Below, one piece after another: positions 10,457 to 34,023 of a DNA stretch of 64,000 nt. This stretch comes from Halorubrum sp. BOL3-1 (GTDB taxonomy: Archaea > Halobacteriota > Halobacteria > Halobacteriales > Haloferacaceae): assembly GCF_004114375.1 (NCBI RefSeq), contig NZ_CP034691.1:1-64000 (forward strand), in the 5' to 3' direction. Every line of letters starts with the position of its first letter. The first letter of the stretch is position 1. The notes under the pieces are model-generated. The model worked only from the letters and a program-made list of their open reading frames with translations. It made no database searches and was not told where the DNA came from. The position numbers were made by a program, and so were the translations under genes.

Positions 10457-10656
10457 TACGTCTTAATAATTAATTGACAATATGGTTTTTGGAATCCTAT
10501 GAGTCGGCTTCCTCTTAGTGTGTTCATCCATCCTTCACAATGTAAATTCACTGTATCTTGTCCATTCGGCTTGATTCTGGGGGGTCCACAGAGTCAAGGT
10601 GTGCTAAGTTCCGTCACAGAAACGCCTTCGGGGATCGAGAGACAGGAGATACCTAG

Positions 10657-11514: not shown

Positions 11515-11629
11515 ATACGAACTGGTCCAACTAGCCCTAAGCACTTGGCCGCTCGAGGGGACCGTATCGCACCCTGTGAATTCCCCGAAGCACATAAGTT
11601 ACCTGCGAGCGAGAATCCGAGAAACGGTG

Positions 11630-13294: not shown

Positions 13295-13375
13295 TCGCGA
13301 CGAGCCCGTTTGGGGGTACGAATGTCATATCCGCCGTTACTCTAAAATGTGATAAGTAATACGGATCCGTACACA

Positions 13376-13939
13376 ATGGACTATCTCATCTCCGATCTCC
13401 ACCTCGATCACGACAACATTATCGACTATTGCGACCGACCATTCAGCTCCGTCGAAGAGATGAACGAAACACTGGTCGAACACTGGAATACGATAATCGA
13501 TCCGGATGACGAGGTGCTGTACGGAGGTGATTTGACCATTCGTTCGTCAGCGGCGGCCTTGCTGGACTGGGTCGACCAACTCAACGGGGAGATCGTCTTT
13601 CTGCTAGGTAATCACGACGACACCGTAATGGAGGGCCTGGATCGAGTCGAGTTCGTTGAGGAGTTCCGGTTTGAGCACCGCGAGGTCCCGTTCCACGCTG
13701 TCCATGACCCGGAAGACGGTCCTTCGAACCCAAAGGGGTGGCTACTCCACGGCCATCACCACAACAACTGGCCCGATCAATTCCCGTTCGTTGACCATGA
13801 CACTCGTCGTGTCAATTTCTCGGTCGAGTTGCTGGACTACCGGCCACTAGCAGTCGATAGGTTGGTCGATTATCTGGCGTGTGGTGAACGGTTTCCCGAT
13901 CGATCTGCCGCTGAGCGCACACTGGAAGCTGATAGCTGA
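13376..13939 (+). CDS. Calcineurin-like metallophosphoesterase 3
   Basis: 187 residues from ATG 13376. This start puts the metal motif at the very N-terminus (MDYLISDLHLDHDNI), and TAAAAT (13343-13348) lies 28-33 bases upstream. Other motifs are YGGDLTI, FLLGNHDD, HAVHDPED and LLHGHHHNNWP. The length and the SDLHLDHDNII start match the small phosphoesterases often found in phages and mobile islands. The substrate is unknown. It ends 11 bases before the DHH phosphoesterase gene, so the two may be co-transcribed. Confidence 0.85.
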   Translation: MDYLISDLHLDHDNIIDYCDRPFSSVEEMNETLVEHWNTIIDPDDEVLYGGDLTIRSSAAALLDWVDQLNGEIVFLLGNHDDTVMEGLDRVEFVEEFRFEHREVPFHAVHDPEDGPSNPKGWLLHGHHHNNWPDQFPFVDHDTRRVNFSVELLDYRPLAVDRLVDYLACGERFPDRSAAERTLEADS

Positions 13940-13950
13940 TCGAACCCAAA

Positions 13951-14961
13951 GTGAGCTACAGTATCGATGCCCCTGCCGTTGAACTACCTCGACTGCTACC
14001 TCAGGGTATGGACGTCGTTGAATCCCTTCGCGTGACTGACTCGCCGCTACTGGTAACCCATAGACACGCTGATCGTGATACCCTTGGGAGTGCGATCGGA
14101 TTACGAGAACTGCTTGGGCGAGGAACAATCTGTACCCCTGACGGGGTCGCACGCCCTGCGAAGTCGCTACTTGAGATGTTCGACATCAATCCGGTTGCCC
14201 ACCCTTCAGCGGTGACACACGACACGGTTGTGGTCCTTGACGCGCCGTCGACGGAACGGATCGCGCCGGTTGACCCGGCAGCGCCAATCCTCATCGATCA
14301 TCACGAATGGGGGAACTTGGCATCGAAAGCGACGGCATCACTCGTCGATACGGATGCTGGAGCAACAGCCGAACTCATCGTCCGACTCGCCGATACTGCT
14401 GACTGGGAGCTATCACCGGGGGCAGCACTACCGTTGCTCGTCGGGCTTCTTGACGACACCAGATTCCTGATGGAGACAGCCCCTCGAAGCGTCACGGCAG
14501 CCGTCGATCTTGTTGGGGCACTTGGCGATCGAAGCGCCGACCTGCCACCATTACTGGACCGCTCGCCGGCGCCGGGCGAGCAGTCGGCTCGGGCACTCGG
14601 AACGCTGCGAGCGACCGGGTATCGAGCTGGCGATCTCTTTGTCGCTGTGACCCATGTTGGTGGGTACGAGACAGCTGCCGCACACGCACTTCGTGATGCC
14701 GAAATCGATCTTACAGTCGTCTGTTCAGAGCAGGCTGACGGGCTCCGGGTGACAGCACGCGCTTCCGAGGCGTTCGTCGAGCGCCAAAGTCTTGGGAGTG
14801 ACGTCCTGCCAGCATTGGCCGACGAGTTCGGTGGAGATGGCGGCGGCCACGAGGGCGCTGGCGTCGCGGACCTTCACGAGGTGCCCGTCGATACGGTTGA
14901 GGCGTTTCTGATTGCCCATCTGGAGTCAGAACTGGGGCTGACCTTCGCGACGGTAGGGTGA
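13951..14961 (+). CDS. DHH-family phosphoesterase (NrnA/RecJ-like)
   Basis: 336 residues with a GTG start. The metal motifs are present: THRHADRDTLGSAIGL (motif I variant), VVVLDAP, LIDHHEW (the DHH motif), DAGATAELIV, LLDDTRF and a C-terminal DHHA1 motif with GGDGGGHEGAGVA. NrnA-type members degrade short oligonucleotides or cyclic dinucleotides; RecJ-type members are larger. The size fits the NrnA-like group. Its position 11 bases after metallophosphoesterase 3 suggests both act on nucleotides, which is inference. Confidence 0.85.
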   Translation: MSYSIDAPAVELPRLLPQGMDVVESLRVTDSPLLVTHRHADRDTLGSAIGLRELLGRGTICTPDGVARPAKSLLEMFDINPVAHPSAVTHDTVVVLDAPSTERIAPVDPAAPILIDHHEWGNLASKATASLVDTDAGATAELIVRLADTADWELSPGAALPLLVGLLDDTRFLMETAPRSVTAAVDLVGALGDRSADLPPLLDRSPAPGEQSARALGTLRATGYRAGDLFVAVTHVGGYETAAAHALRDAEIDLTVVCSEQADGLRVTARASEAFVERQSLGSDVLPALADEFGGDGGGHEGAGVADLHEVPVDTVEAFLIAHLESELGLTFATVG

Positions 14962-14985
14962 AGAGCTCAAGCTCTCTGGACACCG

Positions 14986-15657
14986 CTACGAACCATTGAG
15001 AAGCCGTGTCCCAGTTTTCGTGGGGAGCTCAGACTCCTCAACACGAGTGATCACGCGATTGATATCGTATTCCACCCGTCGGGGTTCGACATCATCAGTG
15101 TCAGTATCGAGCACCGCGTATGCGGCTCGCTTGTCGCGATCTCGTGGCTGACCGACGCTCCCTGGATTCACGATGAGTCGATCGTCGATCGTAGCCTCAT
15201 GTTGAATATGGGTGTGCCCAAGTACAATTCCTGCGTGGTCATCCAGATAAGGTCGCATTTCCGGGAACTGTGCTGGGCGTACGTACGCTCCGAGTTTGTT
15301 TGGATCCGGATGGCTGTGCACCAACCGATATGTTTCGTCTGCGAACTCTGTCCGTGGTGGGAGTTCAGCAAGCCACTCTCGCTGCGCGTCGGTTAACTCC
15401 TGTTGAGCAAGTTCAAGCCCAGCGTGTGCCATCTCGTTATGTACGTAGCGATGTGGCGTTTCGACGTTACGGTCGTGGTTGCCCTGTATGACACGTGAAC
15501 AGACAGATCGAACACGCTCAAGACACTCCCGTGGCCAGGGATTGTATCCGACGACATCGCCCGCACAGATGATGTCATCAACGGATGGCATATCATCCAG
15601 TACAGCTTCGAGAGCTGGGAGGTTCGCGTGGACATCTGAAATCAAGCCAACGCGCAT
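14986..15657 (-). CDS. YfcE-type metallophosphoesterase 4
   Basis: 223 residues with a perfect N-terminal start (MRVGLISDVHANLPALEAVL). Further motifs are ICAGDVVGYNPWP, VIQGNHDRNV, LVHSHPD and VLGHTHIQ, then VNPGSVGQPRD, typical of the YfcE/MJ0936 group of small phosphodiesterases. It is convergent with the DHH gene, with 24 bases between the stops. It looks intact. Confidence 0.9.
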   Translation of the reverse strand: MRVGLISDVHANLPALEAVLDDMPSVDDIICAGDVVGYNPWPRECLERVRSVCSRVIQGNHDRNVETPHRYVHNEMAHAGLELAQQELTDAQREWLAELPPRTEFADETYRLVHSHPDPNKLGAYVRPAQFPEMRPYLDDHAGIVLGHTHIQHEATIDDRLIVNPGSVGQPRDRDKRAAYAVLDTDTDDVEPRRVEYDINRVITRVEESELPTKTGTRLLNGS

Positions 15658-18739: not shown

Positions 18740-20141
18740 CATCCGTCTTTAGTTAAGCCTCACACCTCGGTTGTGTAGCGGTAGCGAGTGTCTCTTGTAA
18801 GATTGGTCGCTGCTTGTGGATCTTTTGAGCGTCTTCGATCAGCCGTTCAAGCAGCGGCGGTGGTGAGTAGCCGAGGTACTCACCGAGTTCGTGGAGAATA
18901 AGCTGGGCGTGCGACCGGAAGGTCGCCGCCCAGCGCTCTGTCGGAAAGACAAGCTCATCATCCGCCTGCTCAGTGACTAGATCCAACAAATCGCGGCTTA
19001 CAAGCAGCGACAGCAGCGCTGCGTACAGTAAGATCTCCACCACGTGCTCATCGCTCGTGTCGAACTCATCCAGTTCGTACTGCGTCTTCAGCTCGCGGAA
19101 CAGCAATTCAACTTCCCACCGACAGCGGTAGATCTCCGCTAAATCCGCCGGAAAGAATTCTTTTCTCGCCAAATTCGTCATATACAGGTGGTAGTCGTCG
19201 GCGTCCTCGTCGCGGACGCCGACGACGCGAAATCGCTTCGTATCCAGCGACCGTGTCCCGTTGTACGGCCCTCGTTTGAACTCTACTTCGACCTCTACAT
19301 CGATGTACTTCCGGTCGAGATCGTCGAGAACAGCGTGGAGCTGCTTGCCCTCTAAGGGAATGGCGCGGCCGCGCCATTCCCGTAACTCCCCCGTAATCAC
19401 CGGATTTGCGTTCTGCTTCAGCCGACTCACGAAGTAGCCGTCGTTCTCGTCGATCAGCGCAAACCGGCGGTACTTGAAGTAGGCGAGATCGAACAACACG
19501 AGGCGGTTCTCAAGCCACGGCCCTGTTTTGAATAGGGTGCTGTCGTGCGTTTTCTCGTTAGCAGTATCGAGCCGTTCAATCGTCTGCTCTGTGGCATTGT
19601 GGAGCAGGTGGAGCTTCGCTCCAGCCTGCTCCTCGTGGCGGGCTTCGAACTGATCTGAGAGAAATTCGTGTAACCGCAACACCGTTCCATCAGCGATCAT
19701 CACATCTCTAAATCGGTCGATATCAGCGTCAGAAGCGTTAGGAACAGCGACCTCGTCGAGCGCGGTCTCGACGAGGTCGCGGAAGTACTTCGCAAGCGTC
19801 GGAGTCAACCGCTGATAGAATCCACTTAGAGAGATCGTCTCATCGGCAGTAGAGTTGTAACAGCGTCTAAATCCGGCGAGTGTTCGGCTTTCGCCTGCGG
19901 CGAAGCCGAACACGAATGCCCAGACGAAGGCAGGGATCTGAAGCTTGCGGTCGCGTTCGACCACGCCGAGTTCCTCGGCGTGCTCTTCGAGGAACTCAGA
20001 AGGAAACAGTGTAGTGAGCCGACGCATAATTCGAGTTGAGGAGTCGTCGTTGTACACAGACACGACTTCCTCATTCCTTCCGAAAGATGCCTCGATAAGC
20101 CGCCGCTGTCACGCGGTTTCTCGCTTAACTAAAGACGGATG
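18740..20141 (-). mobile_element. ISH8-type element, copy 2 (intact), with 10-bp target duplication
   Basis: 1402 bp with the same 19-bp inverted repeats as copy 1, in reverse orientation. It is flanked by perfect CACAGTGTAT at 18730-18739 and 20142-20151. It lies just upstream of the moxR-vWA operon, whose box A (20185-20190) is outside the element. Confidence 0.95.
18753..20063 (-). CDS. ISH8 transposase (IS4 family), intact
   Basis: 436 residues, GTG start (MSVYNDDSSTRIMRRL). Trp-48 is present where copy 1 has a stop. The catalytic DDE region includes VMIADGTVLRLHEF, LVLFDLAYFKYRRFALID and the downstream CRWEVELLFRELKTQYELDEF segment, whose YxxxxxxE-type spacing is characteristic of IS4 transposases. 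This protein could mobilise both full-length copies and the 224-bp derivative at 35964-36187. Confidence 0.92.
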   Translation of the reverse strand: MSVYNDDSSTRIMRRLTTLFPSEFLEEHAEELGVVERDRKLQIPAFVWAFVFGFAAGESRTLAGFRRCYNSTADETISLSGFYQRLTPTLAKYFRDLVETALDEVAVPNASDADIDRFRDVMIADGTVLRLHEFLSDQFEARHEEQAGAKLHLLHNATEQTIERLDTANEKTHDSTLFKTGPWLENRLVLFDLAYFKYRRFALIDENDGYFVSRLKQNANPVITGELREWRGRAIPLEGKQLHAVLDDLDRKYIDVEVEVEFKRGPYNGTRSLDTKRFRVVGVRDEDADDYHLYMTNLARKEFFPADLAEIYRCRWEVELLFRELKTQYELDEFDTSDEHVVEILLYAALLSLLVSRDLLDLVTEQADDELVFPTERWAATFRSHAQLILHELGEYLGYSPPPLLERLIEDAQKIHKQRPILQETLATATQPRCEA

Positions 20142-20214: not shown

Positions 20215-21150
20215 ATGAGTAAGCGAGATAATGTCAGTATGACTAGCTCCCCGACCCTGGTCGGCGAGCCTACAGGGGAGTCGTTTCGAGAGTTGACAAC
20301 GCTGGCAGATGTCGGCCACCAGCACGTTCCGACGATCAAGCAGGAGACGTATCACGAGCGCACGGGAGACAGTGACCGGACAGACGTCGAGATAGTCACT
20401 CGGGCGCTCGAACTAGGCATGAATGTCGTGCTGAAGGGGAACCCCGGTGTCGGGAAGAGCTTCCTGATCCGGTATTTGTGCGCACAAACGAACCGCCCAC
20501 TGTATCGCATGACGCTTTCGCAGACGACGTATCGTGAGGACCTCGTCGGACATCTTCACCTCGTCAGCGGTGAGAACGGCGAAACGGTAACCGAGTGGGT
20601 CGACGGGCCACTCACCCGAGCAGCCCGTGAAGGCGGAATACTGCTCTTAGACGAGATCAACGCTGCCGACGCAAACACGGTCGCCGCACTGAACTCAGTA
20701 ATGGAAAGCCGGGGCACGCGAACGCTTACCCTTCCCCAAACGGGTGAGCAGATAACTCCACACGAGGAGTTCCGGGTCGCCGCTACGGCCAATCCCGGAT
20801 TTCAGGGCACCTACGAGCTCAATGACGCCTTTGAGGACCGATTTCGGCACATCGAACTAGAGTATCTGCCTGTCGACGTAGAAGTCGATCTGATCTTGGA
20901 ACAGTCGCAGCTTGACAGCGGTCGTAGAGAGGAGATTACTCGACTCGTCGAGTTCGCTGAGCGACTCCGAGAAGCCTATCGTGAAGGCGAATTGTCGACG
21001 CCGATCACCACGAGGGAGCTTATCCGAATCGCTCAGTTCATGGCTGATGATTTCATGCCGCTGCGGGATGCGGTCCGAAGCGAACTCGTCGCCCGTGTCG
21101 ACGAGTACGACGAGTCGCTGGTCCGCACGCTCATCGATACACAGCTCTGA
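20215..21150 (+). CDS. MoxR-type AAA ATPase
   Basis: 311 residues. Walker A GNPGVGKS lies near residue 80, Walker B GILLLDEINAAD near 142, with a sensor-1 region AATANPGFQGTYELNDAFEDRF; this is the MoxR/CbbQ/NorQ pattern. These ATPases remodel or activate protein complexes, usually with a vWA-domain partner encoded next door, as here (next gene 6 bases downstream). The N-terminal 60 residues are polar and specific to this protein. It is the first gene of a three-gene operon with the vWA and HEAT-like proteins. Confidence 0.9.
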   Translation: MSKRDNVSMTSSPTLVGEPTGESFRELTTLADVGHQHVPTIKQETYHERTGDSDRTDVEIVTRALELGMNVVLKGNPGVGKSFLIRYLCAQTNRPLYRMTLSQTTYREDLVGHLHLVSGENGETVTEWVDGPLTRAAREGGILLLDEINAADANTVAALNSVMESRGTRTLTLPQTGEQITPHEEFRVAATANPGFQGTYELNDAFEDRFRHIELEYLPVDVEVDLILEQSQLDSGRREEITRLVEFAERLREAYREGELSTPITTRELIRIAQFMADDFMPLRDAVRSELVARVDEYDESLVRTLIDTQL

Positions 21151-21155
21151 GTACG

Positions 21156-23044
21156 ATGGAACTCACACCGGAGACGTCAAGCGAAGAGCTCTCGCAGTTC
21201 GGCCAGCCAACGCGGTCGAGCGAGCAACGGCGCCACGAACTCGAGCGGCTCGCGAATTTCTGTACGGCCCGAGATACACAGGTACAGGTTCAGTTGGACC
21301 CGGTACGGGCGCTGTGTCGACCCAACGACGAGACCGACGGGTTGGAGATCCTGATCCCGACAAAAAATACGAGCAGTGTCACACCGCTTTACCCCAGGAG
21401 GCGTGGGACCGCCAGATGCAGGTCGCGCTCCTGTTTCATGAACTGGGACACGTGCTGTACTCCGACTTCGATACATTCGGGACTCAACTTGCCGAGACGC
21501 CGAACCGATGGCAGTCTACGTTCCGGATGATCTACAACGCCGGCGAGGACGGGGCCGTCGAGACACAGGTCGCTCGTCGATACCGAGTCGACGAGCTCCT
21601 GCGGGTACTGAACCGAACGCTCTCGACTATCGCTGCGAATCGACACCGCGAGTACGTTGAACTGTTCGAACACGAGGAGGGTTCTCACGGGGAGAAGACA
21701 CGAACCTACACCGTATTCGAAGCGCTCAGACAGGGAATTCTCGATGGCGGGTTCGTTTCGAGCAGGCGCTTCGAACGGATCTGTGACCCGTCGGACGACG
21801 CGCACGTTGTCATGGACGACCGTGGTGACGTGATCCGCGAGCTGGCGCCCGAAATTGAGTCGTACACAACGGAGATGTGCTCGATCGAAGACCCTACTGA
21901 GCGCGTCACTCGTGCGGTCCAGCTGTTCGACGAGGTGCGCCCGACTCTGGATTTGCTCGAACCGATCCAACTCCAGCGCGTCCAGACAGCCGCCGTCAGA
22001 CCGAGCGACGCGAACGGTTATTCATCATGGAACCCGCGGCAGGCTCGTTTGCTCCCGCCAACTGCCAAAGGCGAGTCGCCCGTTGACGGCGATGGCGACG
22101 ATGACGGTGATACCGCCGACGCAACGGTCACGGTACACAGACCCGACGGATCCGTGGCCGGGAAAACGGCCGCCGAACACGACTGGGTCGCCGACCGACG
22201 AGAGAACGGCGCTGTCCAGTCTGGTGACGCCACCTCCGGGCGGTCGCCGCTAGAACAGAGCGGTCGTGCGTATCTCGATATCGTCTCCGAAGCCGATTTG
22301 GATGTCGGTGCGGTTCGTATCCCGCGGCCCGTCGATAGTGCGGACGTACAGACTCGGTTCACTCGCGTCACCGAGCGTACATCGAAACTCCAGTCCGAGC
22401 TCCGAACCCAACTCAGACGCGAGCGGCGCCAGCAACTGGTTCGGGGAACGCGAAGCGGGCGGCTCGATACCCGCCGGGCCGTTGCGGCGGCGCGCGGACG
22501 CGAACGGGTGTTCTCACGGCGCGAATCCGGCGCCGACCGCGATTACTCCTGTCTGCTCGTGCTCGATCGCTCGGGATCGATGCAAGGCGGGCCTGTCGAG
22601 GCGGCAGAGGAGGCAGTGACTGCGCTCATCCACACGCTCAACGCCGTCGGGATCTCTGTCGGAGTGCTTTCTGTTTGGAAGTCAACGGTGTGTCTGGAAC
22701 ATCCCTTCGAGGGCAACCCGAGCGAGTCCGCCAACAGACTCCTAAGCCGCCGCGCTGACGGCGGAACGCCGCTTGCTGAGCCAATTGCTGTCGCCCGTCG
22801 ACGAGTCGATCGTGGGGAGGGAAGTGAGCCCTTTATCATCGTCATCACGGACGGTGACCCCGACGACGAGGATGACTATCGGACGCAACTAGAGCGGTGT
22901 TCGGTCCCCGTGTTCGGGATTTACATCGGGTGCCGAGAACGCGATCACAGCGGGTATTTCAACCATATCGTCCACACCGATTCCGACTCCGTTCGCGGTG
23001 AGCTAGCCGTGATCGCCCGCCGACTGTTCGGAGGCCGACGATGA
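21156..23044 (+). CDS. vWA-domain protein with HExxH motif, needing a -1 shift at an A6 run
   Basis: The start at 21156 reads MELTPETSSEELSQ... for 70 codons to ILIPTK, then goes out of frame. A continuous frame one base back begins KKYEQCHTALPQ and runs to 23044. The crossover is A6 at 21362-21367 in the slippery context A-AAA-AAT. The combined product is about 629 residues: LLFHELGHVLYSDFD (HExxH, near residue 92), a central acidic linker, and a C-terminal vWA domain with MIDAS motif VLDRSGSMQ (near 470) and ITDGDPDDEDDY. This resembles CbbO/NorD-type partners of MoxR ATPases. Either a programmed -1 shift, a mutation or a sequencing error explains the break. The stop overlaps the next start (ATGA). 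Confidence 0.8.
21362..21368 (+). promoter_or_regulatory. Candidate -1 slippery heptamer (A AAA AAT)
   Basis: In the upstream frame the codons are ACA AAA AAT; a one-base back-slip gives AAA AAA TAC and enters the long vWA frame exactly. A simple one-A deletion in a homopolymer would look the same. Confidence 0.4.
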
Positions 23045-26000
23045 CCGACGCACAGTCGGCGGTCACGAACGTTGAGGTCATTCGCTCTCGGTGTCAATAC
23101 CGCGCGGGAACCCGTTCAGCTGATGAGCACCTTGACACGCTGTTAACCGCATTACGAGCCGACGAGCGGATCATCCGGGAGTATGCCCGGCGGTACTTGA
23201 CCGTCCTTACTGAGGAGTGTCCCGACCGTGCTGACGATGTCGCGAGGGCGTTTCGATCGATGATCGCAGCCAATCGCGAACTGAGTCCCGGGACTATCGC
23301 GGACCTCTCAGAGTGGGCTGTCGCGTATCCGCACACCTTCGCGCAAGCCGGCGCCGCCCTCGCCGCCGATATAGCACCGAGTTCTGACACCCGAACGCCG
23401 GAGTCGATAGCGATGGCGTTTTTCACCCGACTCGGGATCGCTGCGCCGGGAGCAATCAAGCCCGCCGTCGGCTCGCTCACCGAGTTCCTGATGGATACAC
23501 ACGGTGATACGACCAGAGGTGCTGCCTGGGTACTCGTCCGTGCTACACAGGAGGAGCCCGCAGTCGTCAGGCCGTTTATTGCCGAACGACTCTGGCAGCT
23601 CGATGCGTCCGACCCGAATGTCGTCGTCGACGCGCTCCATGGCTTGGGTGCTATCGGATGGGTGCTCCCTGACGAGATTCCGGCAGTCGAACGATTGTAC
23701 CCGCACCTGTCGGCAGCGAACCCGGAGGTCCGCACAGCAGCACTTGAAGCGATCGGTCGGATCGCCGGCCGCCCACCGATCGATGAGACGCCGTACGGAT
23801 TCGCATCACCGGACAGCATCGAACCGGTCATAGAACTCGTCGTCGAAGCGGTTGAAAGTACAACTGACGACGTCAGAACGGCCGCACTGACGACGTTGTC
23901 TTGGATCTCCGAGACTAACCCAGAGTTGATCAAGCCGCACTCCGAGGCACTTCGAGCCGGCCTACCGGCGGAAGATCCGGACGACGTCGAGACGCTCGTC
24001 GATATCGCTAGTAGCCTCCCCGAGCCACCGATCTGGTCGATACTCACGACTGTCGACGACTTTGCCGAAATCGTTTCCGTAGACGTCCTGACCGCACTAC
24101 TCGAATCGATCGACGATATCCAACGCCCTGCCGACAGCAGCCCGCTGCTGCCGCTGGTACTGGAAACGATTCAAGACGAGGCGCTCATCAACTCACGAAT
24201 GATCTCGGAGTCGAAGTTGAAATGTCTTGACCTCATCGCCGATCGTGCGGTCGAGACGAACGAGATCGAGCAAGAACTCGAGCAGATCTGTGAGAGCGTG
24301 GCCGCGGACCCGACGGAGGTGACGACAGGTGAGATTACGCTGGTGACCAGTGTCTGTTTACAGGCCCGGACATCGCCAGCAGGCGGGTCGCCGCCGGTCT
24401 CGCTTCCGGACCTACTGGAGGCGTTTATATCTGGACTGCCGACCACTGGTCGGTCCCAGCGGTACGCTATCTGCCGCTCGTTGGATCAGATCTGTCGTGA
24501 AACGACCGGATACGCGCAACGCTGTGCCGAGATTGTGACTGCGAACCCGTATTATACCTTCAGTTGTACGGCCGTGAGCGGCCCAATCCTCACAGTCGCC
24601 GAGCAGCATCCGGAATATGTCCAAGAGACGATTCGACAACTCACCACGAACATGCGGCTGTTAGACCGGGAACGAGAGTCCGGAGAGTCTGTCAGCATCA
24701 GAACTACCTCCAACGCGTTCGACTCGGTACTGTTCGACCTCTGTTCGGAGGCGCCGGACGTTGCACACGATGACGTCGCACACGTGGTCGACGTCATCGC
24801 CCGTGCAGGGAGCAACGCGGAGGCGGCGGCGCGTGCACTCATCGAGATCCGCAAATCGGTGTCGAATCCCGATTCGCAGGTCACCGAACGGCTGACCGGG
24901 CTACTCGATGTTCCTGCGGTCGAGGAACTGTTCGTTCCGATCAGCGTCGCGATCCTGCTCGGCGACCCAACTGAATCCCAGTGGAACCGCGCAGTCAAAC
25001 GGATCCAGAGTGTGGCCCACCGCGACTACGAGACCCTCGACACGCTATCGGCACTCGATGCGTCTTGTGCGGACGCGATCCGGGCGATCGAGGTCACTGT
25101 GAGTCGAGAGGTGCTCAAATCAGAGCCTGCGGTCGCCGCAGCGCATATCACTGCCGTCCCGGACTCCACCACGATCCTCCAATCGAAACTGGTCGCTGCC
25201 TTCGGCGACATCTACACCCAGGTGGGGTCCTCGACCGCGCTCACGGCGCTTGTCACAGTCGCCGACGAAACGCCGGCAGTTGCCGCCGCCCTATCCGATG
25301 TGCTCGACACGCTGTTCCTCAGCGGGGTTCCCGATCTCGTCTGTGACGGGTTGGAGATCGTCCGGGCAGCAACCGGGTGTGACCCTGAGACACTGGCACT
25401 CTGGGAGCGCCATCCCGACCCGCAGGTCCGGCAGGCAGTTTCACAGACGATGTCGACGGTCGAGCGAGACTCACACCCTCTGGCAGCGGAAACCGACTCG
25501 TTGGCAGCGGTGTCGGCGTCGGGATCGAACTCCCCGATCACAGCCTGTCGGCGAGCACTCGCGACAGGCGAGGGAGACGCCGCTCGCGAGGCGTTACGCA
25601 CCGGCGTTACCGACGGCAGCTTGGACCGAACGGCGGCAGTCACCTGTCTCCTCGGCTACGCGTCTCGTGTCTCTGACTCAGCGGAACGCGACGAAACGCT
25701 GGCGACAGCCGCACGGCTTTCCGACTCAGTACTCACTGATCAGGACGTCTTTGCGGACGTCACCGTCGAAGGGAATGCCGCGACCAACAGCGAGCCACAG
25801 ACCATGATCGCGCGGTGCCTCACGGACGAGGCCCCCGAGATCCGGCGGAACGCGGCCGCGTATCTCGGCAGTTTTGGAGTCCCACACGCCGATGAGACCT
25901 CAGATCTCCTCGGAGCGGTTATCACGAGACTACTCATGGATTCGACGGCGGCCGTCGAGCAGCGACTCCTGCTGCTGGTCAAACGCCATCCCGAGACGGT

Positions 26001-27552
26001 CGACCTCGAGACGGTCACCCCGACTATCGCCGAATCGGTTTCGGGACCGTTCCTGACCGCCCGGGTCGCATGCGATGCGCTCCGTGCGGCGTGTTCGGAA
26101 CAGCCCGCGGTCGTAGAGACCGAACGCGACGCGCTCGAACAGACACTCGCCGCGAAAGACGAGCGAACGCGACAACTCGCTACGTCGGTGTTCAACGAAC
26201 TTGGCATGCTCAAGCCCGAACGCCTCGAGCCGTCGATAGGGCGGTTGGTCGATCAAGCACAAAGCGATTCGGCGAACCGCGCTCAGCTGTTGCGGACCAT
26301 AGCTGCCACAGATCCGGAGATCATCACCGATCGACGGGGTCTCGCTGAAGCCGCGCAGGCGCAGTTACTGGCCAACTCGGAGGACCTGACGTCGATCCAC
26401 GCAGCCGGCGAGATACTGGAGTCGTTCGCCGAAACGGATCCGGACCTTGTCGCGTCAGTTCTCGACGAGTCGGTCGCGGAGACACTCAACGACGGGGAGA
26501 TTGACCAACTCGCCGTCGAGTACCATCTCGTCCGGACGCTGTCGGCGGTGGCGCTTGACCATCCAGGTCTGATCCAGGCATTCGAGGAGCCGATCGAGAC
26601 GACCCTGGAGAACGCGGGAACGTACAAATCGTACAAAGCGAACACGAGCGAGCGGGGAGAACTCACGGCTGACCCCTCTGCGGTCCGCGAGGCCGCGGCG
26701 ATGGGGGTCGGCCGAGCTGGTGTATCGGTGTTCGAAACGGCACTCGAAGCCTTCCCGGCGGTGCCAGGCAGACCGACCCTTGATCCGGCTGTAATCGCCC
26801 AATATCTAGTCCACGCCGGATCCGGATCGGACGGTGATGTCCTCGAGCAGATCCAAACTGTCTACGGTCCCGATCGGATCGACTCAATCTGTCGGTCGCT
26901 GGCAGCCATCTCGATCCCGCCGTCGGCGGTCGAGTGGAAACGGCATCGTCTCACAGCCCTTGGGACGCTGCTCCCGTCGATTCCAACGGACAGTGCGTGT
27001 CGACCGGCGATCGAAACGATGTTTTCGGCGCTCGATGCGTCTGATATGGACGTCCGAACGGACGCAGTTGAGTCCCTCCGACCGGTCTGGGAACGGGGCC
27101 CGCTTGTCCCGGACGAGTGGCTCGCGAGGTCGTTTGAGATGCTCCAGGACGATGCACGGCCAGTCCAACGGGCGGTCGCCGATCAGTTGCCAACAGTTGC
27201 CCGTCACTCACACGTCTCGATGTCGTTCGTGACGGACGCGCTGGTCAGTAGAGTGACGGCCGACAATCAGTCGGTCACGCGGCGCCGGGGCGCGACCCTC
27301 GCACTCGGGACAGTCGGCACTCGGGTGCCGACCGCTCGACGCCGGTCCACTGAAGCCTGCCTCGCGTGTCTCGATGACTCTGACCGCTACGTCCAGCAGT
27401 ACGCAGCCGAGGCGTTGCTCTCGTTCGGGGAGCTGTCACCCGCACTGCTCACGCCGATTCCCGACGCCGTTTCTGCCCTTCGTGACGACAGTGTCCCCGA
27501 AATCGCCACACTCGGCGAAGAGCTGTCCGAGATACTGTCGAACGAGCGCTGA
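23041..27552 (+). CDS. Giant HEAT-like helical repeat protein
   Basis: 1503 residues, overlapping the vWA stop by four bases. It is almost entirely paired helices in HEAT/Armadillo style: recurrent blocks such as NPEVRTAALEAIGRIAG, TDDVRTAALTTLSWISETNPEL and DRYVQQYAAEALLSFGELSP, spaced about 35-45 residues, from the N- to the C-terminus. There is no enzyme motif, signal peptide or membrane helix. In MoxR-vWA systems a large variable third protein often supplies the target-binding or scaffold role, and this fits that place. Its high GC and even codon use resemble the vWA gene, so the three genes probably travelled together. Confidence 0.85.
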   Translation: MTDAQSAVTNVEVIRSRCQYRAGTRSADEHLDTLLTALRADERIIREYARRYLTVLTEECPDRADDVARAFRSMIAANRELSPGTIADLSEWAVAYPHTFAQAGAALAADIAPSSDTRTPESIAMAFFTRLGIAAPGAIKPAVGSLTEFLMDTHGDTTRGAAWVLVRATQEEPAVVRPFIAERLWQLDASDPNVVVDALHGLGAIGWVLPDEIPAVERLYPHLSAANPEVRTAALEAIGRIAGRPPIDETPYGFASPDSIEPVIELVVEAVESTTDDVRTAALTTLSWISETNPELIKPHSEALRAGLPAEDPDDVETLVDIASSLPEPPIWSILTTVDDFAEIVSVDVLTALLESIDDIQRPADSSPLLPLVLETIQDEALINSRMISESKLKCLDLIADRAVETNEIEQELEQICESVAADPTEVTTGEITLVTSVCLQARTSPAGGSPPVSLPDLLEAFISGLPTTGRSQRYAICRSLDQICRETTGYAQRCAEIVTANPYYTFSCTAVSGPILTVAEQHPEYVQETIRQLTTNMRLLDRERESGESVSIRTTSNAFDSVLFDLCSEAPDVAHDDVAHVVDVIARAGSNAEAAARALIEIRKSVSNPDSQVTERLTGLLDVPAVEELFVPISVAILLGDPTESQWNRAVKRIQSVAHRDYETLDTLSALDASCADAIRAIEVTVSREVLKSEPAVAAAHITAVPDSTTILQSKLVAAFGDIYTQVGSSTALTALVTVADETPAVAAALSDVLDTLFLSGVPDLVCDGLEIVRAATGCDPETLALWERHPDPQVRQAVSQTMSTVERDSHPLAAETDSLAAVSASGSNSPITACRRALATGEGDAAREALRTGVTDGSLDRTAAVTCLLGYASRVSDSAERDETLATAARLSDSVLTDQDVFADVTVEGNAATNSEPQTMIARCLTDEAPEIRRNAAAYLGSFGVPHADETSDLLGAVITRLLMDSTAAVEQRLLLLVKRHPETVDLETVTPTIAESVSGPFLTARVACDALRAACSEQPAVVETERDALEQTLAAKDERTRQLATSVFNELGMLKPERLEPSIGRLVDQAQSDSANRAQLLRTIAATDPEIITDRRGLAEAAQAQLLANSEDLTSIHAAGEILESFAETDPDLVASVLDESVAETLNDGEIDQLAVEYHLVRTLSAVALDHPGLIQAFEEPIETTLENAGTYKSYKANTSERGELTADPSAVREAAAMGVGRAGVSVFETALEAFPAVPGRPTLDPAVIAQYLVHAGSGSDGDVLEQIQTVYGPDRIDSICRSLAAISIPPSAVEWKRHRLTALGTLLPSIPTDSACRPAIETMFSALDASDMDVRTDAVESLRPVWERGPLVPDEWLARSFEMLQDDARPVQRAVADQLPTVARHSHVSMSFVTDALVSRVTADNQSVTRRRGATLALGTVGTRVPTARRRSTEACLACLDDSDRYVQQYAAEALLSFGELSPALLTPIPDAVSALRDDSVPEIATLGEELSEILSNER

Positions 27553-27565
27553 GTCGGCTCCGGGA

Positions 27566-28000
27566 TCAAGCGCCGTCTGCGACGAGCGTCGACTTAATCC
27601 GGTCGGCACTCGCCTTGTTCACACTGGGGGGCACTGTGGGTTCGCCTGCGCTCGCGTATCGGATATCCACCGGGAAGACCAATTCGTGCTGTTGAAGTTC
27701 TTTCGCGGCCGTCCGGTCGATCCCGGCGATGTCCGCCAGCGTCAACCGAGCCGCATTAGTGCGTACTCGCTGCCGGTCAGCCGCGTCGATCGACGACTCT
27801 GAAATGGGTTCTGGCCGTATACAATTGACTTGTCCGCCCGGCACAGTCACGGTCGTGTTCAGCAAATGGGTAAACAACTGCCGTCGGTTCCCCGGTCGCG
27901 ATAGATAGAGAGATTCGCACAAAACCCGGAATTGTGGCGTGGTATCAACCCTTTGCCGAGTCGTCGCCGACGCCGTGTAAAGCCAGTACTCTGGGCTCAT
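27566..28000 (-). CDS. Unrecognised 144-residue protein
   Basis: The frame is open and ends 13 bases from the HEAT gene stop (convergent). No family is recognised. A segment ARLTLADIAGIDRTAAKELQQHELVFPVDI is helical and could be a helix-hairpin-helix-like piece. The N-terminus contains ATTRQRVDTTPQFRVLCESLYL. It may be downstream in the same transcript as the SIMPL-domain gene, which ends 24 bases before it starts. Confidence 0.45.
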   Translation of the reverse strand: MSPEYWLYTASATTRQRVDTTPQFRVLCESLYLSRPGNRRQLFTHLLNTTVTVPGGQVNCIRPEPISESSIDAADRQRVRTNAARLTLADIAGIDRTAAKELQQHELVFPVDIRYASAGEPTVPPSVNKASADRIKSTLVADGA

Positions 28001-28024
28001 CTGACCGACGTGGCAACCTCCGAC

Positions 28025-28639
28025 TCACCTCGCCGCCAGCTTGTACGTTACTTCGACTGCGTGTTTGAATTCGATCGGGCCGGGGTGGATGTCACTCCGG
28101 TGGGCGACAGTGATCGGGTGCGTGGGTCGCTCAGTATCATCCTCCGCGGATGCCGTTGCGGTGACCAGCCCGTCGACCGATCGGCCCTCGCTGGCCGCGA
28201 TTCGATCGGCTTGCCGACGAGCATCTCGCATTGCGGCCCCGACCAGTTCCTCCTGTACTTCGTGTATTTTGTGTCGGGCAACAGTCGGCGTGACACCCGC
28301 GACCGTCGCTCCGGCTTCGACGACCGCTTCACCAGCCGCGCGGGCGGTGTCGCCGTCTGCCGCAAACTGCAGCTCCGCTGTTGCGTTGGCAGTCTCGTCG
28401 GATGGAACGTCGCCGGACAGCCCCTCGCCTGCGACCTGATATCCACAGAGCTCTATCTGTTCAGCTGCGACCCCGAACTCCTTGAGCGATGCTTCGAGCC
28501 CTTCCATCCGCGTATGTAGCGTTTGGCGAGCCCGCTCCGGTGGGGATTTTGCTACCGATAGTCGGAGTCGCACTGTTTGGTACGAAGGTGTGATCGCCAT
28601 CGTCGCTCGTCCTCGAACCGTTATTGTATGGTCCGTCAC
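28025..28639 (-). CDS. SIMPL (DUF541) domain protein
   Basis: About 204 residues from GTG 28639 (VTDHTITVRGRATMAITPSY); the longer frame to 28768 has an Arg-rich, unlikely N-terminus. The family pattern is clear: TVRGRATMAITPSYQTVRLRL, then GLEASLKEFGVAAEQIEL and a C-terminal AMRDARRQADRIAASEGRSVDG. SIMPL proteins are mostly periplasmic or cell-surface in bacteria, with poorly defined roles (oxidative stress, signalling). No signal peptide is seen here. Confidence 0.75.
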   Translation of the reverse strand: MTDHTITVRGRATMAITPSYQTVRLRLSVAKSPPERARQTLHTRMEGLEASLKEFGVAAEQIELCGYQVAGEGLSGDVPSDETANATAELQFAADGDTARAAGEAVVEAGATVAGVTPTVARHKIHEVQEELVGAAMRDARRQADRIAASEGRSVDGLVTATASAEDDTERPTHPITVAHRSDIHPGPIEFKHAVEVTYKLAAR

Positions 28640-28830
28640 GGGACTTGATTTGGACTCTTCGGGCCAACAGTCGCTGTTCACCGCGGCTGTGAACAGTTCC
28701 CGATACGGTCTCTCGATCGACGACAGAGGGGAACCGACCCGACGGAACCGGTGTTGTCTGCGCGACATCCTCCAACCACTAAAGCCGTGGATTTTCTCGC
28801 CAAAATTCGTATTACCCGGTTGATGACGGC

Positions 28831-29167
28831 TCAGCCGTCACCACGTGCGAGGTCCAAGAGTCCGTCCTGAGCGAGATGTGTCACGAACCCGATGAACGAC
28901 GCGATCCCCCAGCCGAAGCCTGCGACCACCGGGCTCCAGCCGCCCCAGATCTGTGTCACGACGGCGGCGTATCCGCCCGTTGCGACTGCAAAGACCACAC
29001 CGGCGGGGAACCGAGTGAATGACGCCTCGGTGAGGGGGTCGGAGGATCGGAATCAGCGTCCGCACGGCGTACCCGACACCGATCGGGACGACCCCGGTGA
29101 GCACGCCCGCGACGAACACCGGTGCGGTGGCGGTGACTCCGGCCAGCGTCGACTCGGGCGGGGGCAT
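28831..29167 (-). pseudogene. Small membrane protein with a frameshift
   Basis: From ATG 29167 the frame reads STLAGVTATAPVFVAGVLTG and VGYAVRTLIPILRPP, with hydrophobic helices. Then the frame turns into Arg-rich nonsense near a five-C run (minus strand; 29034-29038). A different frame continues convincingly as LTEASFTRFPAGVVFAVATG, WSPVVAGFGWGIASFIGFV and ends at 28831. A single indel at the homopolymer restores a protein of about 112 residues with three or four membrane helices. It follows the 29171 gene by three bases. Confidence 0.65.
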
Positions 29168-29170
29168 GAA

Positions 29171-29425
29171 CTAAACCAGCAGCAACGCGACTGTCCCGGC
29201 AGCGACAACCGGGAGCCACCGGTAGGCGAGTCGATAGGGACGCGAGGACGGGTGGTCGGCGTCCGGGACGATCGATCCGCCCAGTGTCCCGGGAAGCGTG
29301 CCGACCGCAGCGAGGAGGCCGATTTGACGACTCCAAACTTCTGTGAACACACCGACGACAATCGGGAAAACCACCACCGCATGGACAACGAGTCCGGCAC
29401 GAAGGTGACGTTCGAACGGAGGCAT
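29171..29425 (-). CDS. Small membrane protein with D-x-DHP motif
   Basis: 84 residues with three hydrophobic segments and the sequence GGSIVPDADHPSSRPYRLAYRW. The PDxDHP signature resembles the membrane-bound metal-dependent hydrolase group (YdjM-like), although that family is normally 170-200 residues. Together with the following frameshifted gene, three bases away, the two could be halves of one such protein. That is a guess. Confidence 0.55.
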   Translation of the reverse strand: MPPFERHLRAGLVVHAVVVFPIVVGVFTEVWSRQIGLLAAVGTLPGTLGGSIVPDADHPSSRPYRLAYRWLPVVAAGTVALLLV

Positions 29426-29440
29426 GGTATCGGCTCCGTG

Positions 29441-30301
29441 TTAGTCTTCGTGCTCGAACTCGAGTTCGAACTCGTCAGTCTCCTCGTCGACACTATCCAC
29501 CGTCGAGCCGGAGTCTGCCTCGTCGAAGGAGCCGGCGCTGTATCCGATACCCACGTCCTCGGAGCCGGACGTTCCGATAACCGAGCGTGCCTGTGAGACG
29601 AGTTCGCGTGCTTCGGCGCTCATGACGGCGGTATCCAGCTGACCGAGGATTCGCTGGAGCTGCCCGGTCTTTCGTCGCCACAGGACGAGCCCGGCCAGTC
29701 CGGCGACGAGTCCACCAGCAACAACTCCGCCGCCGATTCCGGCCGGTAGCGGCACCGCTGGCGTCTGGACAACTGCCACGTCCTCGGCCGGGAGCCTCGG
29801 CGCGACGTCAACCGACTCTGAGACGATCCGGCTGTTCGCGGCGAACTGGGTGGTGACCTCAACGCTGGCGAGCCTGTCGCCGTTCGGCACGAGCGTCCGC
29901 GGGTACAGTTCCATCTCGACGATCACCTCCTCGCCGGGACGCAGGCGGTCGATTGTGAACGCGCCGGGGTTGTCCTTGACCCGGGTCACGACCTGTCGGC
30001 CGTCCTCCGTGCTGACGATGGTGTCGACACTCGACGCGCTGATGAACGCCTGAGTCGTCGAGTCAATGTCGACCTCCGTCGATTCGAGCGTCCGGTCTTG
30101 GGGAGTCACCGACACCCGAAGCGTGAGGGCGTGGTTCGACTCGCCGCTGTCACCGAGACACGTGGTTGTGACCTCGGCTGGTACTTCTGCTTGCTGTGCG
30201 GCGGCCGTCGTGCCGGCCAGCCCAGCGCCAACCGGGAGCAGCAAGACTATTACGACGACCGCGAGCTTCTGTACCTGTGTTCGGGTTCTGGATCTGAACA
30301 T
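29441..30301 (-). CDS. Secreted, membrane-anchored protein with acidic cytoplasmic tail
   Basis: 286 residues. A signal peptide (QVQKLAVVVIVLLLPVGAGLAG then TTAAAQQAEV) is followed by about 150 residues of beta-rich extracellular domain (LTLRVSVTPQDRTLESTEV, RLRPGEEVIVEMELYP). Then comes a membrane helix (PAGIGGGVVAGGLVAGLAGLVLW), a basic stop-transfer RRK and a 75-residue acidic tail inside the cell ending EFELEFEHED. It sits 30 bases after the tubulin-like remnant and 15 before the membrane protein. I infer that it links the envelope to the tubulin-like GTPase. Confidence 0.75.
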   Translation of the reverse strand: MFRSRTRTQVQKLAVVVIVLLLPVGAGLAGTTAAAQQAEVPAEVTTTCLGDSGESNHALTLRVSVTPQDRTLESTEVDIDSTTQAFISASSVDTIVSTEDGRQVVTRVKDNPGAFTIDRLRPGEEVIVEMELYPRTLVPNGDRLASVEVTTQFAANSRIVSESVDVAPRLPAEDVAVVQTPAVPLPAGIGGGVVAGGLVAGLAGLVLWRRKTGQLQRILGQLDTAVMSAEARELVSQARSVIGTSGSEDVGIGYSAGSFDEADSGSTVDSVDEETDEFELEFEHED

Positions 30302-30331
30302 AAGTTGGATGGATCAGTGATCGGTTACGAG

Positions 30332-31555
30332 CTACTCCTCCGGGTCGACTCGCAAGACCTCCGGGTAAGCCGTCGAGTCGTCGACGTCGATGTCCGTCCC
30401 GACGACGTCGTGGGTCCCCACCCGAACCGCCTCCATACCGATCGGGTGGAGGAAGTTCTCGAAGTGGATGTTACCGTACTCGACGAGGATGGTGAATTCG
30501 TCGTCGGCCTGTTGGGAGATCAGCTTGGTGTCGAGTTCGTACTCGGAGCTGGCCATGTCCGTGACATTGTCGTCGCCCTCCGCGCCGTGCCAGATGTCCC
30601 GCATGGTGGCCTCGTCCGCGAAGACAATCGGACGGCCCTGTGCCGGCGACCGCGAGCCGGCCTGCGTCATCAGTCTGTCGTTGAGGGGCGCGTCTCCTTC
30701 CTCGGCGCGGAGCGCGCTGTTGATGTGGTTCGCCGCCTCTGTCTGGTCGATCACGCCCTGGTTCCAGAGCTGCGAGAGGCTCGGCGAGTCGGAAAACAGC
30801 TCCGGGTCAATGTGGTCCGGATCCGTGACCGGCAGCGTCACGGTCCGGTCCATCCGCGGATTTATGAGCTGATCGCGCAGGTCGTCCCGGTCGCTCTGGA
30901 TCGTGTCGCGCTGGTTGCGGGCCGTACTCAGGCTCGCGTCGATGCGTTCGAGCTTGGAAGCGAGGTCGGCCATCTCGTCGCCGAGCTCGGCTCGCTGACG
31001 CTCCAGCTGCTCGCGCATCTCCTCGAGCGTGTTCTGGGTTCGCGTGAACTCGGAGGCAAGCTAGCTGAGCTCGCTGAGCGTCCGCTCGATATCGTCGATA
31101 TCCCCTTTGAGGTTCGAGCGCTTCGAGTGATCGACGAGGATCGTGGTCTGGTCTAACGCCGCCTGCTTGGCCTGGCGCCGCTACTTGAGGTACGGTCGGA
31201 TCACCTTGGTGAACTGTACCAACGGCGGTGCGGACCTGTCGAGTGCCTCGTTGAAATCCTCGAGTTCGTCGGCGTGTTCGTCGACGTACGCCGTAATCTT
31301 GTCCGGGAAGCTGTGGCTCTCGAGTCGCTTGGCGAGGTGGTCGACGACCGCCTGCTGGGTGATGACCGCAAGCAGGGACTCGGAGGGAACGGCGTCGTGG
31401 AATTCCTCTGCCAGCTGGACCTGGATCGTCTCTACGCGGTCGCCGATGAGTTCGGTGCTGACCTGCCCGGGGCTGAGGTTCGTAGCGGTCTTCAGCGCGA
31501 GGTCGCGGGCCCGGCGTGCGACTGAGCTCTCGCCGCCATCGGCCTGTACTTCGTC
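30332..31555 (-). pseudogene. C-terminal remnant of a second tubulin-like gene
   Basis: One frame runs from inside the transposase fusion (about 31555) to 30332, with TAG at 31181-31183 and 31061-31063. The part before the first stop is helical (RARDLALKTATNLSPGQV, AVITQQAVVDHLAKRLES). A coiled coil follows (MREQLERQRAELGDEMADLA). The end has DDEFTILVEYGNIHFENF, matching DEITMVLFVSDVFLDNL at the same C-terminal place in the intact 4809 protein. The N-terminal GTPase domain is gone, replaced by an IS5-type transposase. The frame from 31018 (228 residues) could still be translated. The junction coordinate is approximate. Confidence 0.65.
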
Positions 31556-32345
31556 GCCGTCGTCCTTTAGCATCGTAAACACGGTCTCACTCATTGACCG
31601 CTGATTGTAGAGATCATCGTCAATTCTGGCGTTGTGAGCTCTCTTGAGTGCGTTTTGCTCGCAGTGTTTGATCACCGGTCGTGTAGACCTGTCACGGCAG
31701 GCTTCGCGGAGATCACTCCACGAGTACATTTTGTCGGCCAGCAACGCCTGCAGGTCTTCGGCGTTCCGCCGAAAAACCTGCAACCCAATATGGCTGTTAT
31801 AGGCTTTCTTCGTCGTGAAATGAGCGTCCATGATAACAAGAGACTCGGTGTCAACGAGTAGCATCATTTTCATCGCGTTGAACGAGTAACCGACCCGATT
31901 CCGGTAGTGTGAGCTGGCTTGATCACGCTGAAAGCCGCTGGCGTCGATCGGCGCGGTGCCTGAGAGCCCCGCCTGCTCCGCTGAGGCGCGGAGCAGGCGG
32001 CGCAGCTCTTTCATCGGGAATTCATCGTCCCAGACGCTGAAAGAGGTGTAATCAGGAGATTCCTCAAGCTCAAACACACCGAGGATTCCCGGTATCTCGT
32101 TGAGATAGTCTTCAAGCTTCCGAAGCGGCTTGTTGATCTCCTCTTTGAGCAGAAGGAGCGCGATCTTCGTTGACTTGGCGTACCCGTTGTCGCCGTCGGC
32201 GACAGCGGGTACGTCCGGTTCCTCTACGTGGCTTGTGGCAAAGTCTCGAAACGTCTGTGCGAGGGTTCTGAGACGCCCCATATCGCCAGACGGCGTCCAT
32301 ATCCCGTGAAATTAGCGATACAATCCGCAGACGGCGTCGGCGTTC
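31556..32345 (-). mobile_element. IS5-type element remnant, truncated and fused to the tubulin-like remnant
   Basis: The right end lies somewhere in 32282-32345 (an 11-base motif CAGACGGCGTC occurs at 32288 and 32329). The transposase frame starts at ATG 32281, and residues 1 to about 240 are IS5-like: AAIDxSGF-type motif as APIDASGFQRDQASSHYRNR, LLVDTESLVIMDAHF, LADKMYSWSDLREACRDRST and DDLYNQRSMSETVF. The last 30 or so residues are missing. The reading frame continues without a stop into tubulin-like sequence, making a 366-codon chimera (31181-32281). No left inverted repeat remains. Confidence 0.7.
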
Positions 32346-32431
32346 AACGTAGCAACTTATAGTTATCGCGCCTTGGAAATGAATTCCCAGTCTCTAGTCT
32401 TAGTCTAGCAGTTCGTGTTTCGACTCCTCAC

Positions 32432-33006: not shown

Positions 33007-34023
33007 TCACCTTCGGCGTACCTTCGAAACGATCTCCCAGGCCGCTTGTTTAGCCTCTGTAATACTATGCTTGCGTCGGAAGTACGAACTGAGATATACC
33101 ACCCCAGCCAATATCGGAATTACCCCGAACCAGTAGTATGATACTGCCAACTGCGGAACAAGCCCTCTCCACGCAAGGATTATACAGATTAGCCCCAGAC
33201 GAGTTGTTGAGTCCCAGATCCACGGCTCCCTGTTTATCCCGTCGCTCTCATCTATATGGAGACACACAGTCAGTTTATAACAGTAGTAGACCCCAAATCC
33301 AGAGTATACAAGCATCCCTCCAAGCAGATACCGTGGGCCGAGAGACACATACTCCATCAAATATAAGCCGATCAACGCCGCGGTGAGTGTAGTTAGCGCA
33401 GTGGCGAACCGTTTTCGAGATCTACTGCCAGTCTTACTTACGCGCCGTCGGACCTCATCACGTTGATCGCGATCATATAAATGGAGAATGTAAGCTCCCC
33501 CGATAACGATCCCCAATAAAACGGGCTGGCTCAGGCCCAAGAAGAGCAGCGCCGTTATCGACGCTACTGCTTCCTCAATTACTGTAGCAGCGTTCGCAAC
33601 TGACGTTACAGTCGCCGTAACCAGACCGGTGAGGCCGACAACTACTAATGCCGCCCCAATGATGAGAGTTAACACGTGGATAAGTTTGGAAAAAAACGGA
33701 ATGTACCGCCGAGAAAAATACCACGGTTCAGTGATATGATTGTATATCGTGGACGCGTCACTGCTACGGAGATCATCTATTCCGTGAGCTCGCTGATGAC
33801 ACGACTCACAGAGTGTCGTCAGATTTGAGATATCGTGTGACCCACCCTGGCTCTTTGGAACGACGTGATGGGCGTGAAGAACAGCGTTCCCGTCTCGGCC
33901 ACCCTTTGCTCCACAGTTTTGACACCGATAATTATCATTCAGGTATACTTCTTTTCTCCGGTTCCCCCAATCCGATGGATAATCTTTTCCCATCTTCCTG
34001 TCAGGTAGATAGTATTCATCCAA
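33007..34023 (-). CDS. HNH nuclease domain fused to a polytopic membrane domain
   Basis: 338 residues. Residues 20-85 are an HNH domain: YRCQNCGAKGG (first zinc knuckle), HAHHVVPKSQGGSHDISNL (catalytic His) and LCESCHQRAHG (second knuckle). The rest has about six hydrophobic helices (LTLIIGAALVVVGLTGLV, LLGIVIGGAYIL, LIGLYLMEYVSLG, LLGGMLVYSGFGVYY and others) and a basic C-terminus. Nuclease-membrane fusions suggest DNA cleavage at the membrane, as in some anti-phage or entry-exclusion proteins; here that is inference. It is AT-richer than its neighbours. Confidence 0.75.
   Translation of the reverse strand: MDEYYLPDRKMGKDYPSDWGNRRKEVYLNDNYRCQNCGAKGGRDGNAVLHAHHVVPKSQGGSHDISNLTTLCESCHQRAHGIDDLRSSDASTIYNHITEPWYFSRRYIPFFSKLIHVLTLIIGAALVVVGLTGLVTATVTSVANAATVIEEAVASITALLFLGLSQPVLLGIVIGGAYILHLYDRDQRDEVRRRVSKTGSRSRKRFATALTTLTAALIGLYLMEYVSLGPRYLLGGMLVYSGFGVYYCYKLTVCLHIDESDGINREPWIWDSTTRLGLICIILAWRGLVPQLAVSYYWFGVIPILAGVVYLSSYFRRKHSITEAKQAAWEIVSKVRRR

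What the first reader, a model, noticed from the sequence alone, without database searches (positions are those of the whole stretch)
20215..31555. MoxR-vWA-HEAT triad facing a broken second tubulin-like operon
MoxR ATPase, vWA/HExxH protein and a 1503-residue HEAT-like protein form one tight operon. Convergent to it is a minus-strand operon: tubulin-like remnant, secreted anchored protein with acidic cytoplasmic tail, and two small membrane proteins. This suggests a complete envelope-linked system in which AAA-ATPase, metal-binding vWA partner, scaffold, membrane anchor and GTPase filament once worked together. MoxR-vWA pairing is established; the rest is inference.
Basis: partly seen in the sequence, partly recalled or inferred. 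Interest (0 to 1): 0.72.

Follow-up and report, generated by a model that had tools for sequence, protein, structure and literature searches.

The report
AAA-ATPase triad beside a broken tubulin-like operon
On an IS-riddled 117-kb contig of a salt-loving archaeon, a conserved ATPase–adaptor–scaffold gene trio faces the ruins of a separate membrane-anchored tubulin-like operon; relatives show these are two independent accessory modules that repeatedly land next to each other, so the link is real but loose.

Summary
The genes are there, with corrections. MoxR (20215–21150) and the HEAT protein (23041–27552) are intact. The vWA/HExxH gene between them has a 1-base deletion in an A-run (21362–21367), so the trio is itself damaged. 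Intact relatives exist for both modules. The MoxR–vWA–HEAT trio occurs in about 14 haloarchaeal genomes; the tubulin-like gene (TUBA) and its membrane protein (SEC) form their own conserved pair. They lie within about 20 kb of each other in the window, Natribaculum and Halolamina (three separate TUBA lineages), and another tubulin type lies beside the trio in Halosimplex. Five trio genomes, however, have no Tubulin_2 gene. The trio's stronger partner is a calcineurin-type phosphoesterase (5/5 trio genomes against 16/190 others, P=9e-6). Best reading: a NorQ/NorD-, CobS/CobT-like AAA+/vWA remodeller acting on a fast-diverging HEAT protein, a new haloarchaeal variant of the MoxR–vWA systems, co-housed with a distinct anchored-tubulin module.

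The parts
20215..21150 (+). MoxR-family AAA+ ATPase, CbbQ/NorQ/CobS/midasin-like; Walker A GNPGVGKS and Walker B LLLDEIN intact
   Evidence: Pfam; PDB relatives midasin, NorQ, CbbQ, CobS; 69-75% identical to trio orthologues
21156..23044 (+). vWA protein with N-terminal HExxH domain (HELGHVLYSD) and C-terminal vWA with MIDAS; broken by a 1-base deletion in the A6 run 21362-21367
   Evidence: PDB relatives CobT, NorD, midasin
23041..27552 (+). 1503-aa HEAT-repeat protein, third member of the trio, intact, 24-28% identical to orthologues
30332..31558 (-). C-terminal remnant of a TUBA-type tubulin-like protein (GTPase domain lost), TAG stops at 31181-31183 and 31061-31063
   Evidence: groups with Halarchaeum and G335 TUBA, support 100/99
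31551..32357 (-). truncated IS element (transposase fragment) that replaced the 5' half of the tubulin-like gene
   Evidence: two other genomic copies 89-92% identical, homology ends at 31551
29441..30301 (-). SEC: signal sequence, extracytoplasmic domain, one TM, acidic cytoplasmic tail ending TDEFELEFEHED; intact
28025..28768 (-). SIMPL-domain (DUF541) protein, not part of the module elsewhere
   Evidence: Pfam 6e-17; no homologue in related loci
27566..28000 (-). uncharacterised 144-aa protein, not part of the module elsewhere
13349..13939 (+). calcineurin-type phosphoesterase, the gene most strongly associated with the trio in other genomes
14986..15657 (-). YfcE-like phosphoesterase, found beside trios of Haloparvum, Halosimplex and G103
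18753..20063 (-). IS transposase inserted between the phosphoesterase cluster and the trio, 150 bp upstream of moxR; near-identical copy at 3530-4690

Best explanation
Two separate accessory modules sit tail to tail on a plasmid-like, IS-damaged contig. Module 1 is MoxR-vWA-HEAT: a hexameric MoxR AAA+ ring drives a vWA adaptor, as NorQ drives NorD and CobS drives CobT. The adaptor carries its own HExxH (zinc-site) domain and recognises, through its MIDAS, a large rapidly diverging HEAT solenoid or the client the solenoid holds. ATP-driven twisting then switches the complex. The frequent calcineurin-type phosphoesterases, kinase-HEAT and kinase-propeller neighbours suggest the switch is set by phosphorylation or nucleotide signals, as in the MoxR-vWA conflict-type systems. 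Module 2 is TUBA-SEC-membrane hydrolase: a tubulin/FtsZ-superfamily GTPase with a long coiled-coil C-terminal part, tethered to the membrane through the acidic cytoplasmic tail of SEC. Module 2 is dead here, and module 1 is probably impaired by the vWA frameshift. Shown: gene content, breaks, conserved orders, co-occurrence statistics and family relationships. Inferred: every protein-protein contact, the switch, the signal and any defence role.
For: Trio conserved in about 14 haloarchaeal genomes, in orders MoxR-vWA-HEAT, HEAT-MoxR-vWA or HEAT divergent. MoxR matches NorQ/CbbQ/CobS/midasin; vWA matches CobT by sequence and NorD/midasin by fold. MIDAS and HExxH are invariant across 7 orthologues. 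HEAT diverges faster than its partners, 24-44% against MoxR 69-88% between genera. The phosphoesterase occurs in 5/5 trio genomes against 16/190 others, P=9e-6, and next to the trio in N. luteum, N. longum, G035, Haloparvum, Haloglomus, G103 and the window. Kinase-HEAT and kinase-propeller genes flank Halomicrobium trios, a propeller is fused to HEAT in G103 and a separate propeller gene adjoins HEAT in Haloglomus. TUBA-SEC occurs without a trio in several loci and the trio without Tubulin_2 in five genomes. Published NorQD mechanism: PMC13036017.
Against: No experiment exists for any member. No contact between MoxR-vWA and HEAT, or TUBA and SEC, could be tested. PADLOC gave no confident defence match for the trio. 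The AlphaFold model of the vWA is mediocre (mean pLDDT 65). The phosphoesterase is also found in genomes without the trio, and Halomicrobium carries it away from the trio.
Confidence: 0.6

Rival explanations
1. One integrated envelope machine: MoxR-vWA remodels a HEAT scaffold that couples to a tubulin-like filament anchored by SEC.
For: Three independent close co-locations of TUBA with the trio, plus TUBB in Halosimplex; genome co-occurrence P=0.009; HEAT-protein pairs divergent from TUBA-SEC in G317/G326; in N. luteum TUBA-SEC sits between two trios.
Against: Five trio genomes lack Tubulin_2 altogether and most TUBA-SEC loci lack the trio; the modules are never in one operon.
Confidence: 0.2
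2. Pure accident: accessory plasmid regions collect unrelated genes, and the co-location means nothing.
For: The contig is IS-rich and decaying; accessory genes cluster on plasmids, so distance tests overstate significance; the co-occurrence P-value ignores phylogeny.
Against: Recurrence on three TUBA lineages and the shared phosphoesterase that also lies beside TUBA-SEC without a trio in G119.
Confidence: 0.2
3. The trio is a metal-cofactor insertase like NorQ/NorD or CobS/CobT, maturing an unknown metalloenzyme, and not a signalling or conflict system.
For: MoxR and vWA are closest to NorQD, CbbQO and CobST; HExxH is invariant.
Against: No metalloenzyme recurs beside the trio; phosphoesterases, kinases and propellers do; the third member diverges quickly.
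Confidence: 0.12

Closest known systems
MoxR-vWA-centric ternary systems (Kaur et al. 2020, PMC7159879)
   Same: MoxR AAA+ plus vWA with intact MIDAS plus a third large component; HEAT repeats, propellers, kinases and calcineurin phosphoesterases belong to the same network
   Different: Third component is HEAT, not VMAP, iSTAND, FtsH or a vWA-fused beta-propeller; vWA carries an N-terminal HExxH domain; haloarchaeal
NorQ/NorD, CbbQ/CbbO, CobS/CobT MoxR-vWA pairs (PMC9976466, PMC13036017)
   Same: Sequence and fold of MoxR and of the vWA domain
   Different: No cognate enzyme (NOR, Rubisco, CobN) alongside; HExxH domain and a giant HEAT partner instead
FtsZl1 family (Makarova and Koonin 2010, PMC2875224), Pfam PF13809 Tubulin_2
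   Same: TUBA relatives carry the Tubulin_2 GTPase domain; membrane-protein and vWA neighbours noted for that family
   Different: Steady partner is SEC rather than a GTPase or OmpA; vWA lies in a neighbouring trio, not the same operon; the window copy lacks the GTPase domain

Membership tests
MoxR-vWA-centric ternary systems | MoxR-clade AAA+ ATPase | tested here: met
   AAA_5 1.4e-28, CbbQ_C, bpMoxR 27.3 bits against cut-off 27
MoxR-vWA-centric ternary systems | vWA co-chaperone with MIDAS aspartates | tested here: met
   DRSGSM, T and TDG invariant in 7 orthologues; window gene frameshifted
MoxR-vWA-centric ternary systems | Third core component is VMAP, iSTAND, FtsH or beta-propeller fused to vWA | tested here: not met
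   Third component is a HEAT protein; propellers occur only as neighbours or HEAT fusions
MoxR-vWA-centric ternary systems | Hypervariable effector or third component | tested here: inconclusive
   HEAT evolves faster than MoxR and vWA, but no swapping of effector domains was seen
MoxR-vWA-centric ternary systems | Role in defence or conflict | not testable with these tools
   PADLOC gave no confident match
NorQD/CobST-type MoxR-vWA pairs | AAA+ of the CbbQ/NorQ/CobS clade paired with an adjacent vWA gene | tested here: met
NorQD/CobST-type MoxR-vWA pairs | Cognate metalloenzyme client in the neighbourhood | tested here: not met
   None recurs in related trio loci
FtsZl1 / Tubulin_2 (PF13809) | Tubulin/FtsZ GTPase domain | tested here: not met
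   Window remnant holds only the C-terminal part (profile 358-777 of 797); intact relatives have it
FtsZl1 / Tubulin_2 (PF13809) | vWA protein in the same operon | tested here: not met
   Trio convergent or separate in all loci seen
FtsZl1 / Tubulin_2 (PF13809) | Membrane-protein partner | tested here: met
   SEC adjacent to TUBA in 9 or more distinct loci

The most novel reading that the evidence does not exclude
MoxR-vWA-HEAT, the calcineurin-type phosphoesterase and the TUBA-SEC anchored tubulin (in some genomes with a ubiquitin-like/E2/JAB-E1 operon) are exchangeable modules of one haloarchaeal system in which an AAA+ switch controls a membrane-tethered tubulin-like filament.
Probability: 0.2. 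Interest if true: 0.75.

Novelty: new variant of a known kind. Interest (0 to 1): 0.45.

Why it matters
If the trio is a new class of MoxR-vWA system, it extends a proposed multicellularity/conflict machinery into haloarchaea with a defined, compact gene set and clear partners to test. The TUBA-SEC pair is a simple candidate for a tubulin-superfamily filament with a dedicated single-pass anchor whose acidic tail could be the binding site, testable in standard haloarchaeal hosts.

Tried and rejected
PF00091 finds no tubulin in the reported interval; the remnant is recognised only through relatives. TAG read-through of the remnant rejected: two stops plus loss of the GTPase half at an IS. Programmed -1 frameshift in vWA considered (A_AAA_AAT fits a slippery site) but no relative has that site or needs a shift; a sequencing error in the homopolymer remains possible. 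SIMPL and the 144-aa gene as module parts rejected (no relatives in other loci). PADLOC and NCBIfam gave nothing decisive; the IetA match belongs to the separate AAA gene at 11576. SEC was not folded: a single sequence was expected to give a poor model.

Full report
Observation. The window is the first 64 kb of a 117,216-bp contig of a 3.67-Mb haloarchaeal genome. The plus-strand genes are MoxR 20215-21150, a vWA/HExxH gene and a 1503-aa HEAT protein 23041-27552. The vWA gene is not intact. Its first 72 codons lie at 21156-21371 in one frame and the rest in another, and in nine relatives the same stretch is read in one frame. The DNA shows one A missing from an A-run at 21362-21367. On the minus strand, an IS fragment (31551-32357; two other genomic copies at 89-92%) is fused to the C-terminal half of a tubulin-like gene, which also has two in-frame TAG stops (profile E 3.5e-45). 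SEC (29441-30301) is intact. The next gene, 29425-28831, has a stop and a frameshift; its intact relatives are single metal-dependent-hydrolase-like membrane proteins in the same order, TUBA-SEC-hydrolase, in Halarchaeum and G335. A SIMPL gene and a 144-aa gene lie between this and HEAT and are not found in related loci.

What the trio is. MoxR belongs to the CbbQ/NorQ/CobS/midasin clade. The vWA matches CobT by sequence (1.5e-8) and NorD and midasin by predicted fold, with an invariant HExxH and a complete MIDAS. The trio recurs in Halomicrobium (3 species), Halosimplex, Haloparvum, Halobaculum, Haloglomus, Halolamina, Natribaculum (2 species), G035, G103 and the window. G103 and N. luteum carry two copies. 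In Halorubellus only a damaged MoxR-vWA pair was found, with no HEAT gene beside it. Between genera MoxR is 69-88% identical, vWA 43-71% and HEAT 24-44%, so the third member diverges fastest.

Partners of the trio. The strongest is a calcineurin-type phosphoesterase family represented in the window at 13349-13939. In a 195-genome sample it is in 21 genomes, and all 5 trio genomes are among them (P=9e-6). It sits beside the trio in N. luteum, N. longum, G035, Haloparvum, Haloglomus and G103. A YfcE-like phosphoesterase (window 14986-15657) lies beside the trios of Haloparvum, Halosimplex and G103. Halomicrobium trios have kinase-HEAT and kinase-propeller genes instead; G103 fuses a propeller to HEAT and Haloglomus has a separate propeller gene beside it. 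In the window an IS transposase (18753-20063) separates the phosphoesterase cluster from the trio.

The tubulin module. TUBA (about 800 aa, PF13809) and SEC are adjacent in at least nine distinct loci. SEC proteins share a signal sequence, one TM and a tail whose last residues are acidic in most members. The window remnant groups with Halarchaeum and G335 (support 100/99).

Do they belong together? In 392 genomes, 10 hold the trio vWA, 19 hold TUBA and 3 hold both (0.5 expected, P=0.009; no phylogenetic correction). Close co-location occurs in the window, Natribaculum (TUBA-SEC lies between two trios in N. luteum) and Halolamina (about 13 kb apart), which are three separate TUBA lineages. In Halosimplex a different, larger tubulin type is convergent to the trio about 2 kb away. 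Against this, Halomicrobium (3), Halobaculum and G103 have no Tubulin_2 gene over cut-off, and most TUBA-SEC loci lack a trio. The association is therefore recurrent but neither module needs the other.

Mechanism. From the NorQD work (PMC13036017) the likely action is ATP-driven twisting of the vWA protein by the MoxR ring, transmitted to a partner; here the partner or platform is the HEAT solenoid (inferred). The phosphoesterase and kinase neighbours suggest a phosphorylation or nucleotide signal (inferred). TUBA-SEC would form a membrane-tethered filament (inferred). In this strain module 2 is dead and module 1 is probably impaired, unless the A-run is a sequencing error.

Known systems. Kaur et al. 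(PMC7159879) list four MoxR-vWA classes (VMAP, iSTAND, FtsH, beta-propeller); none has a HEAT third component, although HEAT repeats, propellers, kinases, calcineurin phosphoesterases and tubulins appear in that network. A haloarchaeal paper notes a MoxR-vWA module in all morphogenetic species without details (PMC10067837). FtsZl1 (PMC2875224) is the known home of the tubulin part.

Limits. Genome searches sample one genome per species and score only a few candidates each, so absences are lower bounds on presence. All functional steps are inferred.

Noticed in passing
L115:1876-5172, L095:6340-9627, L126:7245-10499, L052:13105-16437: A compact operon of 76-aa proteins that look ubiquitin-like (by sequence and length only; no Pfam match), E2-like proteins and a ThiF E1 protein with an apparent N-terminal JAB motif and C-terminal TM lies beside TUBA-SEC or the trio in Natribaculum, Halolamina and G028.
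   Followed up: partly
window 4809-8207 and G000:C2:110342-110542: Two intact larger tubulin-like genes (TUBB, about 1130 aa). In other genomes TUBB is nearly always next to a 5-6 TM protein family of unknown function.
   Followed up: partly
window 49-2460: A protein pair (C-terminal part resembling GrpE from memory, untested; and a transglutaminase-like protein) whose relatives sit together near TUBA in Halorubellus, G033 and G119.
   Followed up: partly
window 8517-15657: Cluster of four phosphoesterases, a DHH phosphoesterase and a double-AAA ATPase (best PADLOC match IetA, 1e-33); relatives of several recur in trio and tubulin loci.
   Followed up: partly
window 33007-34023: HNH-nuclease protein with a membrane part; HNH relatives lie directly after SEC in Halolamina and G028.
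   Followed up: no
L054, L055: Two consecutive HEAT-repeat genes (930 and 998 aa) divergent from TUBA-SEC in two genomes, with no MoxR or vWA seen beside them.
   Followed up: partly
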